Source: Thiohalomonas denitrificans
Lineage (GTDB): Bacteria; Pseudomonadota; Gammaproteobacteria; Thiohalomonadales; Thiohalomonadaceae
Assembly (NCBI RefSeq): GCF_016841685.1
Contig: NZ_JAENYR010000013.1
Span: 1-64,000, forward strand
Direction of reading: 5' to 3'
Length of the DNA: 64,000 bases
Under the pieces are notes generated by a model, which made no database searches, was not told where the DNA came from, and worked only from the letters and a program-made list of their open reading frames with translations. The stretch's first letter is position 1. Each line of letters opens with the position of its first letter. A program made the translations under genes and the position numbers. Positions 55,701 through 60,579 of this stretch are shown in pieces.

Positions 55701-56753
55701 ACCGGCATCGAGGTCCCAGCGGATGCCTGGCAGCTCGATGCCCTTCCGCAACACCTGCTCATGAATTTCCGGGTGACGGACGAAAAGGGTAAGACCCTCC
55801 AAGAGGGGCGTGATCTGGTGCGCCTGCAGCAGGCAATGGCCGGACAGGTACGCCAGACGCTGTCGGAAAAGCCCCTTGCGGGCATTGAACGGAAGGGGAT
55901 AACCGCCTGGGACTTCGGAGAACTGCCGGAAACCGTAGAGACGCAGAGCGGCGGGCTGACCTTACGTGCCTGGCCGGCGCTGGTCGATTGCGACGAAAGC
56001 GTAGCCATTCGCCTCTTCGAATCGAAAGCCGCCGCCAAGGGGAAAAACCGGGCAGGACTGCGGCGCCTGTTCACTCTGGAGGCCCGGGACAAGGTGAAAT
56101 ACCTGCGCCGCAGCCTGCCGGACCGACAGACGCTCTGTCTGCTGTTTGCGCATCGGGGTGGTTGCGACCCGCTGTGCGACGACATCATCGCCGCCGCTAT
56201 CGACCGGGTACTTTTCGCGAAGGATGAGGCGCCCCGCAACGCATCCGAGTTCGAGGCGCGCCTGGCCGAGGGGCGCAGAACACTGGTGCCGGTGGCGGCC
56301 GAAATTGCCAGCTATGTCAAAGCGGCCCTGGAGCAGGAGCGGCTGGTTCGCAAGGCCCTGAAGGGCCCGCTGGATCCGCAGGCCATCCAGACGGCGGCGG
56401 ACGTCAATGTGCAGATCGAGCGGTTGGTCTACCCCGGCTTTGTCAGCGCCACCCCCTCCGAATGGCTGCCGCGGTTACCGGCCTACTTGAAAGCGGCGCT
56501 CTCGCGTCTGGAGAAACTGCCGCGCAGTCCCGCCCGCGATCGGCAGGCGGCGCAGGAGCTCGCGCCGCTGGTGGAGCGTCTGGAGACGCGCTGGGCGGCG
56601 ATACCGGAAGGTGAAAGCCCCGAATCGGAACTGCAGCGCTTTCGCTGGTTGCTGGAGGAATTTCGGGTATCGCTGTTCGCCCAGGAGCTGGGTACCGTAG
56701 AAAGGGTTTCGGCGACACGCCTGCAGCGACAGTGGAAGGAATCTGTCGCCTGA
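52785..56753 (+). CDS. hrpA: ATP-dependent RNA helicase HrpA
   Basis: HrpA is a DEAH-box helicase active on mRNA and on collided ribosomes. The 1322-aa product compares with 1300 in E. coli. Motif I is GETGSGKTTQ near residue 107, motif II DEAH near 204, motif III SATINTEAF, and motif VI NQRAGRCGR. HA2 and OB-fold parts and the long DUF3418 C-terminal extension follow. The frame opens earlier (52698), but the ATG at 52785 aligns best with known N-termini. TATAATGG at the chosen ATG resembles a -10 box, so a later GTG near 52806 is not excluded. Confidence 0.93.
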   Translation: MDSSRPGVPEVLETLETLFHDIHACMLADRGRFRRRLEGLKRRHSQGKPMDRGLEALRRDVATSRARRQRRAETMPSPDYPGELPISDRRAEIAEAIGNHPVVVIAGETGSGKTTQIPKICLELGRGVDGLIGHTQPRRIAARSVAARIAEELHTEIGRSVGYKVRFTDRSGPDSHIRLMTDGILLAEIQSDPLLEHYDTLIIDEAHERSLNIDFLLGYLKRLLPRRPDLKLIITSATINTEAFSRFFGGAPVVEVSGRTYPVEVRYRPVAGDDPDDRDRDQPQAICEAVDELARENPLGDILIFLPGEREIRETAEALRKHRSRNPVPTEILPLFSRLSAGEQDRIFRSHAGRRIVLATNVAETSLTVPGIRFVIDTGYARISRYSYRTKVQRLPIESIAQASANQRAGRCGRVANGICIRLYSEEDFLGRPEFSDPEVRRTNLASVILQMANLKLGDVGEFPFLEPPDRRFITDGYRLLHELHAVDERNCLTEIGRKLVRLPVDPRIGRMLIAADTEGSLKEVLVIASALSIQDPRERPMEAQQQADECHRRFMDEESDFIAFLSVWDYYHEHARHLSNSKLRKLCRAEFLSYLRMREWHDIHGQLVALVRELGLTPNQESAEYGAIHRALLSGLMSHAALKIEAGEDKRQRESRKRRRPLVGYQGARNIRLAIFPGSGVAKKPPRWIMAAELVETSHLFGRLVARIDPRWLESLGKHLIKRSYSEPHWEQRPAQVGAFEQVTLYGLIIVARRRINYGPIDPALSREIFIRRALVHGDYRTSAAFFSHNRRLVEELESQEAKSRRRDILVDEQVLFEFYDTRIPENIYSGHGFDQWRKQTEREKPKWLFLTREELIREDSEGVDAVQFPDHLGIGGAELPLGYHFEPGHPADGVTVVVPVELLGQLKPARFEWLVPGLREEKLIALIKSLPKSLRRNFVPAVNFARAALEALRADDAPLTEVFARQLLRMTGIEVPADAWQLDALPQHLLMNFRVTDEKGKTLQEGRDLVRLQQAMAGQVRQTLSEKPLAGIERKGITAWDFGELPETVETQSGGLTLRAWPALVDCDESVAIRLFESKAAAKGKNRAGLRRLFTLEARDKVKYLRRSLPDRQTLCLLFAHRGGCDPLCDDIIAAAIDRVLFAKDEAPRNASEFEARLAEGRRTLVPVAAEIASYVKAALEQERLVRKALKGPLDPQAIQTAADVNVQIERLVYPGFVSATPSEWLPRLPAYLKAALSRLEKLPRSPARDRQAAQELAPLVERLETRWAAIPEGESPESELQRFRWLLEEFRVSLFAQELGTVERVSATRLQRQWKESVA

Positions 56754-56853
56754 CGGTGAGTCACCTCAAAGGATTCGAGTATCGGATGGTCGGGTCGACG
56801 CTCTTTGACCATACTTGTTTTCTAGTCCTTCAAACAGACGTAAGGGGACAAGT

Positions 56854-57588
56854 ATGAATGCCGAACACCCGTGGGTAAAAGAGGTTCGTGCGGCCCTGGA
56901 GCGCGAACCCCGGATCAACCTTCACCGCAATCCCATCGATGTCGAAATGGACGGGGAGACCCTCGCTCTTGGCGGGGAAGCCGGCTCCATTGCTGCCAAG
57001 CGGCTGGCCTTTCGGACCGCCTCCGCGATTGCCTCGCGTGTGTCGGATCATATTCGGCTGGTTCCGACGGAGGTCCGGGATGATGGTGCCGTCAAAGATG
57101 CCATCGTGCTCGCCTTTGAACAGGAGTCCGCCTTTCGTGAATGCAACATTGCCGTGAGCTGGCACAATCAGCACGAGGTGATCCGCGCCACCCAGTCGAC
57201 ACTTGCCTGCACCTTCCACATCACCATCCGTGAGGGCACCGTAACGCTCGAGGGTGCCGTCGAGAGTCTCTCGCACCGGCGATTGGCCGAGGCACTGACC
57301 TGGTGGTCCACCGGAGTGACCGATGTGGTCGACCGGGTTCGGATCGTACCCGAGCAGCCGGATAGCGACCACGAGATCACCGATGCGGTCAAGCTGGTGC
57401 TCGAAAAAGATCCCCTTGTGCACAGCGGCCAGATTTACGTGACCACCACCGGCGGTACGGTGATGCTGGAGGGACTGGTGCGTGAAGAGCAGGAGCGGGA
57501 GATGGCGGAAATGGATGTCTGGTTTCTGGAGGGTGTGGACGATGTGGTGAATCGCATAGAGGTGCGCCAGGGGATGCCGGTCAGTTGA
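56854..57588 (+). CDS. Protein with three BON domains
   Basis: The 244-aa protein contains three consecutive BON-like repeats at about residues 5-75, 85-160 and 170-240. Repeats two and three show the family motif GTVTLEGAVESLSHRRLAE and GTVMLEGLVREEQEREMAE followed by VDDVVNRIEV-type ends. The first is more divergent. Unlike OsmY, no signal peptide is present, suggesting a cytoplasmic location. The ATG at 56854 follows TAAGGGGA. BON domains are thought to bind phospholipid or other hydrophobic ligands. Confidence 0.85.
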   Translation: MNAEHPWVKEVRAALEREPRINLHRNPIDVEMDGETLALGGEAGSIAAKRLAFRTASAIASRVSDHIRLVPTEVRDDGAVKDAIVLAFEQESAFRECNIAVSWHNQHEVIRATQSTLACTFHITIREGTVTLEGAVESLSHRRLAEALTWWSTGVTDVVDRVRIVPEQPDSDHEITDAVKLVLEKDPLVHSGQIYVTTTGGTVMLEGLVREEQEREMAEMDVWFLEGVDDVVNRIEVRQGMPVS

Positions 57589-57855
57589 CACGGACGTTAA
57601 TGGAGCTGCACGAAAGGTTGCCAATAAAACGGGGGTGTAATTACACGGGGCACAGGTTCGCATTCTCCGTAGTTCACGTCAGTTTTTTCGTAAGTCGGCC
57701 TTCAGACCGTCGGGTTTTGACGGGGTAAAGCCCTACTTACATCTGAGGTCATAAGAGGGCGGCGGTTCAGCTATGGGGCACGGATTCACACTTCCCGTGT
57801 TCTCCGTGTTTCATCGGTCAGTGCCTCGGTAGGTCGGCGCCGTGCGCGGTCGAAG
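57589..57855. other. Gene-free gap upstream of the encapsulin operon
   Basis: It contains the hairpin repeat at 57690-57740 and, around 57780-57825, a degenerate TTCCCGTGTTCTCCGTGTTTCATCGG stretch resembling repeat arms. No gene is visible. Confidence 0.5.
57690..57740. repeat. Long imperfect hairpin GTAAGTCGG...ACTTAC
   Basis: GTAAGTCGGCCTTCAGACCGTC pairs imperfectly with GACGGGGTAAAGCCCTACTTAC. A related segment, GGGCTGTAAAGTCCGACCTACG, is present at 50353-50374 between ppx and ppk1. This looks like a dispersed hairpin repeat. Confidence 0.6.
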
Positions 57856-57883
57856 TGGACATCGGGCATCCCCTTTCTATGCT
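57856..57883 (+). promoter_or_regulatory. Possible promoter of the encapsulin operon
   Basis: TGGACA at 57856-57861 and TATGCT at 57878-57883 are 16 bp apart, about 45 bp before the EncFtn start codon. I saw no Fur box or other operator. Confidence 0.35.
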
Positions 57884-57929
57884 TAGCTACAGCGGTATTG
57901 CTTTTCAGAAAAATCAAAAGGGGTTTGTC

Positions 57930-58325
57930 ATGAGCCACGTTGGCTACCATGAACCGTACGAAATGCTTTCACAAAATACCCGTGACATGCATCGCGCCCT
58001 GCGGTCACTGGAAGAAGAGCTGGAGGCGATCGACTGGTATCGCCAGCGGGCGGACGTCACCGAGGATGGCCCGCTGCGTGAAGTCCTGCTCCACAACATG
58101 CGTGAAGAGATTGAGCACGCTGCGATGGTGCTTGAGTGGATTCGTCGCAGCGACAGCGATTTCGATCAACAGCTGCGCACCTATCTGTTCGCCGAAGGGG
58201 ACATTGCGAAGATCGAAGAGGAGGCGGAAGGCGAAGGAAAGGCAGACGAAGAAGCTTCTACAAGATCCACGGAAACCCGTCCATGGCTGACCATCGGCAC
58301 GATGAAAGGAGATGGCCGCGTATGA
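57930..58325 (+). CDS. Encapsulated ferritin (EncFtn) with encapsulin targeting peptide
   Basis: This is a 131-aa ferroxidase cargo of encapsulin nanocompartments. The two-helix core reads RALRSLEEELEAIDWYRQRAD and HNMREEIEHAAMVLEWIRR. By comparison with Rhodospirillum rubrum EncFtn from memory, E30, E60 and H63 are the likely iron ligands at the dimer interface and W36 the conserved tryptophan. After an acidic linker the C-terminus carries LTIGTMKG at residues 120-127, matching encapsulin targeting peptides. The ATG at 57930 follows AAAAGGGG. Its stop overlaps the encapsulin start (ATGA). Confidence 0.94.
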   Translation: MSHVGYHEPYEMLSQNTRDMHRALRSLEEELEAIDWYRQRADVTEDGPLREVLLHNMREEIEHAAMVLEWIRRSDSDFDQQLRTYLFAEGDIAKIEEEAEGEGKADEEASTRSTETRPWLTIGTMKGDGRV

Positions 58326-59119
58326 GCTATCTGAACCGGGACGCCGCAGCATTTGATGCCCACATCTGGGAGCGAATCGACAGCGAGGCCGTCGATGCGG
58401 CCCGAGCTCTGATCACTGCCCGTTGTTTTCTTCCGGTGAATGGTCCCTATGGGGTCGGACTGACATCGGTTGAGCTGGGCGAGGATGGATTCCACACCGA
58501 GGCCCGCGAGGGAGAGGCCGAGGCGGTGATCAGCCGCGCGGTCTCGGTTCCGATGTTGGGCCAGGCGTTCTCCCTAAGTATTCGTCGCATCGACGCACAC
58601 CTGCACATGGGCCAGCCCATGAACTTCGCGCCGGTGCAGGACGCAGCCGAAGCCATAGCCCGGCGCGAGGAACGCTTTATTTACTACGGCGCTCCCGAAA
58701 TGGGCCTGGAGGGCCTGTTGACCTGCAAGGGTCACCATGAGGTAAAGGCTGGCGACTGGTCCAAGTTCGACAAGGCACTGGAAGATGTTCTGTCCGCAGT
58801 GAATACTCTGGATCACTCCGGATTCCACGGACCCTACGCGCTGACCCTGTCTCCGGCCCTCTACAACAATCTGTTTCGGCGTTACGAAGGCACGGACATG
58901 CTGCAGCTGGAGCACCTGAGGCGACTCTGCGAGCTCGGTGTGTACAAGGCTCCCATAGAGGGCGGAGCGGTAGTCGATGCGCACGTCGGGCAGATCGTAA
59001 TCGGACAGGACATGTCGGCGGGCTACTCCCGGCAGGACGGCATTCACTATCACCTCTATCTGAGTGAAAGCGTAATCACGATGGTCGAGGAGCCCGAGGC
59101 TGTCTGTATCATCGGCTGA
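58322..59119 (+). CDS. Encapsulin shell protein (family 1)
   Basis: This 265-aa HK97-fold protein self-assembles into a nanocompartment. It begins MSYLNRDAAAFDAHIWERID, includes TARCFLPVNGPYGVGLTSV, the E-loop region with AVSVPMLGQAFSLSIR, and the C-terminal IVIGQDMSAGYSRQDGIHYHLYLSES stretch typical of the family. The upstream extension of the frame is only the other-frame reading of EncFtn. Start and EncFtn stop overlap by 4 bp, so shell and cargo are made together. The expected task is iron oxidation and storage in the lumen. Confidence 0.95.
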   Translation: MSYLNRDAAAFDAHIWERIDSEAVDAARALITARCFLPVNGPYGVGLTSVELGEDGFHTEAREGEAEAVISRAVSVPMLGQAFSLSIRRIDAHLHMGQPMNFAPVQDAAEAIARREERFIYYGAPEMGLEGLLTCKGHHEVKAGDWSKFDKALEDVLSAVNTLDHSGFHGPYALTLSPALYNNLFRRYEGTDMLQLEHLRRLCELGVYKAPIEGGAVVDAHVGQIVIGQDMSAGYSRQDGIHYHLYLSESVITMVEEPEAVCIIG

Positions 59120-59238
59120 CCGGGGCGTCTTGGTGCGATTTCCCTGGTCATTCACAGGGCGGGCATAACGGTTAACCGGTATCCTTCCGGGACAGGACAG
59201 GAACAGGACAGGGTAAACACAAGCAAATACTCGGGCTC

Positions 59239-59469
59239 CTAGAGCCCGATCAGTTCGGCATGCAATCCCTGTCGCTGCACATGGTCCAGAACCGCATGGC
59301 TGTCGACGGCATCCGGATCGAATTCCACGACGATAAGATGCTTTTGGTGTTCTGCACAACGTACACGCTGAATGCCGTTCACTCCTTCCAGGGTGGAGCA
59401 GACCTGTGAAGTGCGGGCATCGTCGAGTTCCTCGTCGATATGGACCGTCACGTCCGCTTTTTTGCCCAT
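59239..59469 (-). CDS. Small HMA-fold protein without the CxxC metal motif
   Basis: The 76-aa protein has the beta-alpha-beta-beta-alpha-beta pattern of heavy-metal-associated domains: KADVTVHIDE, TSQVCSTLEGVNGIQRVRC, KHLIVVEFDP and SHAVLDHVQRQGLHAELIGL. The usual metal loop MxCxxC is absent; the loop reads DEELDDARTS. Metal binding by this loop is therefore unlikely. The ATG at 59469 is preferred over an upstream start. It is convergent with encapsulin and ends near a GGGCTCCTAGAGCCC hairpin (59233-59247). Confidence 0.7.
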   Translation of the reverse strand: MGKKADVTVHIDEELDDARTSQVCSTLEGVNGIQRVRCAEHQKHLIVVEFDPDAVDSHAVLDHVQRQGLHAELIGL

Positions 59470-59946
59470 CGCGCGATCTCCCAAAAAACCCGTTTCGATT
59501 GATCGAAAAGTAGCAGGTTCGGTTTGCTGCGCAATGCGGCTCGCGCGGCATGCAGGTCGGTCTTAACATCAAATAGTCAGCCAATTCACTAGTGTGTGTT
59601 CGCGCTCAGCGCCTGCTGTTTGATGAACTTGTTTGAGTTGGTGAACGACGCGAACCGGGGGGCTTCTGGATCGGGTGATTGATGGGCCGCAGACGGCGGC
59701 GGCTCTGCCTAGCTTATCTCTATCTGTCGGGTGGCCGCTTGATGGGGCTGCCTCTGAAGAGATTCCGTTTCCCGGGTGGCTGCTGATCGGCATCGGCAGG
59801 TGATGCCTTACGGCATTGGCCCACCAGTCGTTTATCGGACCTGGCGATAGTCACGGGTCCGCTCTTATGTAGTCGAGCGGCCTGAGCCGACAGGCTACCG
59901 GTGCGTCAACTACAGTTAAGGGGGTCTCCCCACCGATCCACCAATC
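59470..59946. other. Gene-free gap between the HMA-like gene and marC
   Basis: I see no gene or strong repeat. Promoters for the two divergent genes should lie here. An open frame at 59569-59793 on the minus strand has no ribosome site or recognisable sequence. Confidence 0.5.
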
Positions 59947-60579
59947 ATGACCGAATTGCTGGTCAACAATCTGGTCACCCTGTTTGTGGTCGTCGATCCC
60001 ATCGGAATCGCCGTGATCTTCAGTGGTCTGACGCGCCACGGCGACCGGGTTTTCCGGAGCTCGATGGCTCTGCGCGCCACCATCCTTTCCACCTTCATTC
60101 TGGTAGCCTTCTTTTTCATCGGGGAAATGCTGCTGCGCACCCTGGGCATCGGTCAACCGGCCTTTCGAATCGCCGGCGGCATTCTTCTGTTCATGTTGGC
60201 TATCGACATGGTGTTCGCCCGCCAATCCGGGTTGCGTTCGGCAACTTTCCGGGAACGGGAAGAGGCCTTTGCGAAGGAGGACATCTCGGTTTTCCCGCTG
60301 GCCTTCCCGCTCCTGGCCGGCCCCGGAGCGATGACCACCGTTCTGCTGATGGCGGACAGCGGCAAGACACCTGCCGTTACTGCCGGCATGGTGGCGATTA
60401 TCTTCATCATCATGGGTTTCACCCTGCTCTCCCTCATGCTCTCCGCCCGGGTGATGGATTGGCTTGGCGAGACCGGCGCCAACGTCATCAGCCGGTTACT
60501 GGGGCTGATCCTCGCCGCCCTCGCGGTCCAGTACATCGTCGATGGCGTACGGCAGATCGCAGCCTCACTGGGGATCTGA
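59947..60579 (+). CDS. MarC family membrane protein
   Basis: This is a 210-aa inner-membrane protein with six helices, of the MarC/UPF0056 family. Features are LVTLFVVVDPIGIAVIFSGLT at the N-terminus and FPLAFPLLAGPGAMTTVLLM in the middle, followed by a long hydrophobic C-terminal half. The function is unknown; despite the name, it is not linked to multiple antibiotic resistance. Its last 15 bp overlap the end of the convergent tesA frame. Confidence 0.9.
   Translation: MTELLVNNLVTLFVVVDPIGIAVIFSGLTRHGDRVFRSSMALRATILSTFILVAFFFIGEMLLRTLGIGQPAFRIAGGILLFMLAIDMVFARQSGLRSATFREREEAFAKEDISVFPLAFPLLAGPGAMTTVLLMADSGKTPAVTAGMVAIIFIIMGFTLLSLMLSARVMDWLGETGANVISRLLGLILAALAVQYIVDGVRQIAASLGI

What the first reader, a model, noticed from the sequence alone, without database searches (positions are those of the whole stretch)
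57930..59469. Encapsulin iron compartment: coupled EncFtn and shell genes, with a convergent HMA-fold protein that lacks CxxC
EncFtn and encapsulin overlap by 4 bp and the cargo ends in LTIGTMKG, a clear targeting peptide. This is a known system type. The less usual parts are the neighbouring small HMA-like protein without metal-binding cysteines and the absence of a visible Fur box. The HMA-like protein could be an accessory that handles iron or shell assembly, but the genes are convergent and that link is inference.
Basis: partly seen in the sequence, partly recalled or inferred. Interest (0 to 1): 0.6.

Follow-up and report, generated by a model that had tools for sequence, protein, structure and literature searches.

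The report
Encapsulin iron-storage compartment with bystander gene
The sequence encodes an ordinary bacterial protein shell that stores iron together with the iron-oxidising enzyme it packs; the small neighbouring metal-domain-like gene is real but belongs to a separate, widespread family that is next to the shell only in this one genus.

Summary
EncFtn (57930-58325, 131 aa) and a family 1 encapsulin shell (58322-59119, 265 aa) overlap by ATGA, and the cargo ends in LTIGTMKG, a slight variant of the standard targeting peptide. Both pass curated family cut-offs and the EncFtn iron-site residues are intact: a new member of a known system. The convergent 76-aa gene (59239-59469, minus) is under purifying selection and its predicted fold is HMA (Z 13.7), without CxxC. 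They are not linked in the other 19 encapsulin-bearing genomes of the class sample, and 41 further HMA-like loci have no EncFtn or shell within about 6 kb. Genome-level co-occurrence is raised (11 of 20 versus 66 of 349) but not corrected for relatedness, and weakens to p = 0.07 against genomes with shell-less EncFtn. The HMA-like family has a small interest of its own: no CxxC in 52 members, but three conserved histidines that topology places at the end of the fold where CxxC normally sits. No Fur box exceeds chance, which is uninformative.

The parts
57930..58325 (+). EncFtn, encapsulated ferritin-like ferroxidase cargo, 131 aa
   Evidence: PF22277 and TIGR04535 over cut-off; iron-site residues conserved
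58287..58313 (+). C-terminal targeting peptide region (W)LTIGTMKG of EncFtn; coordinates approximate
   Evidence: sequence; matches consensus LXI of PMC11202242; LTIGAMKR in the congener
58322..58325 (+). ATGA overlap of EncFtn stop and shell start
   Evidence: sequence
58322..59119 (+). Family 1 encapsulin shell protein, 265 aa
   Evidence: NF041155 238.5 bits, PF04454 211 bits
57856..57883 (+). Weak sigma-70-like promoter candidate TGGACA-16-TATGCT in a block conserved in the congener
   Evidence: number of such sites in the region equals the shuffled expectation
59239..59469 (-). Neighbouring 76-aa HMA-fold protein without CxxC; judged a bystander, not part of the system
   Evidence: fold, family, no recurrent linkage
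59231..59249 (-). Terminator-like hairpin at the 3' end of the HMA-like gene, between the convergent genes
   Evidence: not above shuffled expectation

Best explanation
A two-gene operon encodes a family 1 encapsulin iron-storage compartment. EncFtn and the shell are probably translated in coupled fashion (ATGA). EncFtn forms a decamer whose subunit interfaces hold the di-iron ferroxidase site; its LTIGTMKG tail docks on the inner shell wall, and Fe(II) entering through shell pores is oxidised and stored inside as mineral. Shown here: gene structure, family membership, conserved iron-site residues, targeting peptide, conservation. Inferred from characterised relatives: decamer, encapsulation, iron storage. 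The convergent HMA-like gene is an independent neighbour: a stand-alone small HMA-fold protein, perhaps binding a metal through a conserved histidine triad rather than CxxC, located here by chance and kept by synteny within the genus.
For: Curated family cut-offs passed for both genes. Best solved relatives are encapsulated ferritins and encapsulins. Residues E32/E62/H65/Y39 of R. rubrum EncFtn (PMC5012862) correspond to E30/E60/H63/Y37 here. The tail matches the published minimal consensus (PMC11202242); the 17 shell-linked loci have a tailed or C-terminally extended EncFtn while the 83 shell-less loci lack a recognisable targeting tail. HMA-like: of 11 genomes of the class sample with both genes, only the window has them adjacent; the next closest pair is 16 kb apart and the rest are on different contigs or hundreds of kb apart. 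43 HMA-like loci (window and congener included) show no recurrent partner beyond ubiquitous ABC ATPases, and no EncFtn or shell apart from those two.
Against: Encapsulation and iron storage were not tested. The targeting peptide differs slightly from the norm (TM, or AM in the congener, for SL). HMA-like genes occur in 11 of 20 encapsulin-positive genomes against 66 of 349 others (Fisher p = 6e-4), so a functional tie in trans cannot be excluded; against genomes with shell-less EncFtn the excess is not significant (11/20 vs 24/78, p = 0.07), and neither figure corrects for relatedness or lifestyle.
Confidence: 0.9

Rival explanations
1. The HMA-like protein is an accessory of the compartment that delivers or buffers iron for EncFtn or helps shell assembly, encoded next to it in this genus and in trans elsewhere.
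For: Adjacent in both genomes of the genus; genome-level co-occurrence with encapsulin raised, 11/20 vs 66/349; conserved histidines could bind Fe(II).
Against: Convergent, no shared operon; no linkage in 19 other encapsulin genomes; nine encapsulin genomes lack it; it is common in genomes without any EncFtn (42 of 271); no targeting tail.
Confidence: 0.06
2. EncFtn here acts mainly as a free ferroxidase, as the short shell-less form must, and the shell is a secondary or inactive partner.
For: Most EncFtn in the class sample and in the window's taxonomic family have no shell; the targeting peptide is off-consensus at two positions.
Against: The shell has dN/dS about 0.07, overlaps the cargo gene, and the tail is kept in the congener.
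Confidence: 0.04

Closest known systems
EncFtn-encapsulin systems of Rhodospirillum rubrum (Rru_A0973, 5da5) and Haliangium ochraceum (5n5f, 7oe2)
   Same: Cargo upstream of shell, iron-site residues, linker and C-terminal targeting peptide (PMC5012862, PMC11202242)
   Different: Targeting peptide LTIGTMKG rather than LGIGSLKG/LGIGSLRQ; the shell scores nearer to longer encapsulins (9i8e, 6nj8, 4pt2) than to the H. ochraceum shell although it is only 265 aa, so the T number is open
Short shell-less EncFtn (s-FLP, Nitrosomonas europaea NE0167, 3k6c)
   Same: Same PF22277/TIGR04535 family and iron site
   Different: No recognisable targeting tail and no shell gene; the common form in the class sample (78 of 98 EncFtn genomes) and in other genera of the window's own taxonomic family
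HMA / CopZ / MerP small metallochaperones (PF00403, NF033795) and NF041115 metal-binding (seleno)protein
   Same: Predicted beta-alpha-beta-beta-alpha-beta HMA fold, Z 13.7 to an ATP7B domain, 6a71; sub-threshold NF041115 matches in 6 of 14 members
   Different: No CxxC; an acidic HIDE-x-L-D stretch follows strand 1; three conserved histidines; below every curated cut-off

Membership tests
Family 1 encapsulin | HK97-type shell protein matching the family 1 model | tested here: met
   NF041155 238.5 bits over cut-off 100, full length; PF04454 211 bits
Family 1 encapsulin | Cargo gene directly upstream with C-terminal targeting peptide | tested here: met
   ATGA overlap, LTIGTMKG tail; minimal consensus LXI per PMC11202242
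Family 1 encapsulin | Self-assembly into an icosahedral shell that loads the cargo | not testable with these tools
   needs expression and electron microscopy
EncFtn (PF22277/TIGR04535) | Sequence over curated cut-off | tested here: met
   132.8 and 134 bits
EncFtn (PF22277/TIGR04535) | Di-iron site Glu32, Glu62, His65, with Tyr39 and entry site Glu31/Glu34 | tested here: met
   E30, E60, H63, Y37, E29, E32 by alignment to 5da5
EncFtn (PF22277/TIGR04535) | Decamer with ferroxidase activity | not testable with these tools
   needs biochemistry
HMA metallochaperone (PF00403) | HMA fold | tested here: met
   AlphaFold2 single-sequence model, mean pLDDT 86.5; Z 13.7, rmsd 1.2 over 72 residues to 6a71; Foldseek top hits are HMA domains
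HMA metallochaperone (PF00403) | Sequence over curated cut-off | tested here: not met
   no PF00403 match for the window protein; only 2 of 14 relatives match it at E up to 1
HMA metallochaperone (PF00403) | CxxC metal-binding motif | tested here: not met
   absent in all 52 family members
Encapsulin accessory gene (for the HMA-like gene) | Recurrent linkage to encapsulin loci | tested here: not met
   only in the genus; 0 of 19 other encapsulin genomes of the class sample

The most novel reading that the evidence does not exclude
The HMA-like protein represents an unnamed HMA-fold family that swapped the thiol CxxC site for a histidine triad (H10, H44, H70, with D12/E13), making it a chaperone or buffer for a metal such as Fe(II), Zn or Ni; in encapsulin-bearing cells it could feed iron to EncFtn in trans (the trans link alone is much less likely, about 0.05).
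Probability: 0.25. Interest if true: 0.5.

Novelty: new member of a known kind. Interest (0 to 1): 0.24.

Why it matters
As an encapsulin it adds one more instance of a characterised iron-storage system, in a lineage whose other sampled genera carry only shell-less EncFtn. The survey is more useful than the locus: most genomes of this class with an EncFtn have no family 1 shell at all, so the short form cannot be loaded into one in those cells, a point left open in PMC11202242. It also removes a tempting guilt-by-proximity link for the HMA-like gene.

Tried and rejected
Linkage of the HMA-like gene to encapsulin: tested on 100 EncFtn loci (most about 8 kb each side, shorter at contig ends), on genome coordinates of 20 encapsulin-positive genomes, and in reverse on 43 HMA-like loci; rejected outside the genus. 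Conserved neighbour of HMA-like genes: none except common ABC ATPases and scattered others. Fur box: none beyond chance. Structured RNA in 56500-60500: none at gathering score. Genome-contig search with the single HMA-like protein: one weak match (L001, 32% identity) in a frame inside a 463-residue ORF, judged chance. Tree of EncFtn cores: the window sits in a well-supported group (100/96) with seven other shell-linked EncFtn, but shell-linked forms as a whole are not one resolved clade on 96 columns. The HMA-like protein was folded as a single sequence because proteins from whole-genome loci are not among the sources the folding tool lists; histidine distances could not be measured as coordinates are not returned.

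Full report
What is there. The window holds a two-gene operon on the + strand: EncFtn at 57930-58325 (131 aa) and an encapsulin shell at 58322-59119 (265 aa), overlapping by ATGA. A 76-aa gene lies convergent at 59239-59469 (-). Upstream is a three-BON-domain protein, and beyond the HMA-like gene a MarC family membrane protein.

Identity of the operon. EncFtn passes PF22277 and TIGR04535; the shell passes NF041155 and PF04454. The closest solved EncFtn is that of Haliangium ochraceum (7oe2), E 1.1e-34. Aligned to R. rubrum EncFtn (5da5), the iron ligands Glu32, Glu62, His65, the nearby Tyr39 and entry-site Glu31/Glu34 described in PMC5012862 are all present, as E30, E60, H63, Y37, E29 and E32. 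The tail LTIGTMKG satisfies the minimal LXI rule of PMC11202242; it is LTIGAMKR in the congener, against for example LTVGSLKG or LGIGSLKN elsewhere. All three genes evolve under purifying selection in the genus.

Context in related genomes. In a class-level sample of 369 genomes (unnamed; the gene content looks gammaproteobacterial, which is inference), 98 have a strong EncFtn and 20 a family 1 shell, by NF041155 and independently by PF04454; all 20 also have EncFtn. Of 100 EncFtn loci fetched (most with 8 kb each side), 17 have the shell next door and a tailed or C-terminally extended EncFtn; 83 have an EncFtn without a recognisable targeting tail and no shell nearby (one of the 17, L151, ends soon after FTVG). 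In the sample of the window's own taxonomic family (20 genomes), only the window's genus shows the tailed form; six other genomes with a strong EncFtn match have the short form. The window EncFtn groups with seven other shell-linked EncFtn at 100/96 support. Horizontal acquisition and differential loss of the shell operon are both possible.

The HMA-like protein. A profile finds relatives in 77 of 369 genomes, and the window's genome has a second copy on another contig. Among 52 members none has CxxC; H10 is kept in 98%, H44 in 96% and H70 in 79%, with D12 and E13 common. H10 lies near the end of strand 1, while H44 and H70 directly precede strands 3 and 4, which pair antiparallel with strand 1 in this fold; the three should therefore lie together, next to the loop that carries CxxC in ordinary HMA proteins. 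That last step is inference from topology, not a measured distance, and metal binding is untested.

Is it linked to the compartment? The evidence says no. Eleven of the 20 encapsulin genomes have an HMA-like gene, but only in the window are the two adjacent; in G328 they are 16 kb apart, and in the others on different contigs or hundreds of kilobases away. The congener G019 keeps the adjacency, but there the whole 18 kb compared is collinear at 75-90% DNA identity, so adjacency carries no independent information. In the reverse direction, 43 HMA-like loci include no EncFtn or shell other than in these two genomes, and no recurrent partner. Genome-level co-occurrence is raised (Fisher p = 6e-4), but against genomes with shell-less EncFtn it is p = 0.07, and neither is corrected for relatedness.

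Regulation. A weak sigma-70-like site at 57856-57883 lies in a conserved upstream block. No Fur-like site exceeds chance, and no known RNA element was found.

Verdict. The compartment is an ordinary new member of a characterised system; the neighbour is a real, conserved but most likely unrelated gene whose histidine signature merits a note of its own.

Noticed in passing
L077, L079, L091, L132, L146 and about 20 further EncFtn loci (e.g. L079:7365-10153): Shell-less short EncFtn genes often sit in the rubrerythrin - Fe-S oxidoreductase (CCG domain) - DUF3501 cluster, frequently between the oxidoreductase and DUF3501: DUF3501 is present in 27 of 83 shell-less loci (26 on the same strand within 300 bp) and in 0 of 17 shell loci. 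The three-gene cluster is described in PMC5114695; the passages I read do not mention EncFtn as a fourth member.
   Followed up: partly
class sample of 369 genomes: 78 of 98 genomes with a strong EncFtn have no family 1 encapsulin in the assembly by two independent models, so short EncFtn there works without a family 1 shell.
   Followed up: partly
L205:1489-2895 (-) (G214, contig 227): One open frame joins an EncFtn domain directly to the C-terminal part of an encapsulin (about residues 113-261 of the model), lacking the shell's N-terminal part; a deletion fusion or a misassembly in a fragmented assembly.
   Followed up: no
59239-59469 and relatives; paralogue at G000 contig 72, 32315-32533 (-) (L211): Unnamed HMA-fold family with no CxxC but three conserved histidines, scattered as single genes with no constant neighbour.
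   Followed up: partly
57635-57646 and the corresponding region of L057: Perfect palindrome GTGTAATTACAC about 280 bp upstream of EncFtn and just after the BON gene, also present in the congener; possible regulator site, not tested.
   Followed up: no
56857-57588: Protein with three BON domains directly upstream of the operon; among the loci examined, present next to it only in the window and the congener.
   Followed up: no
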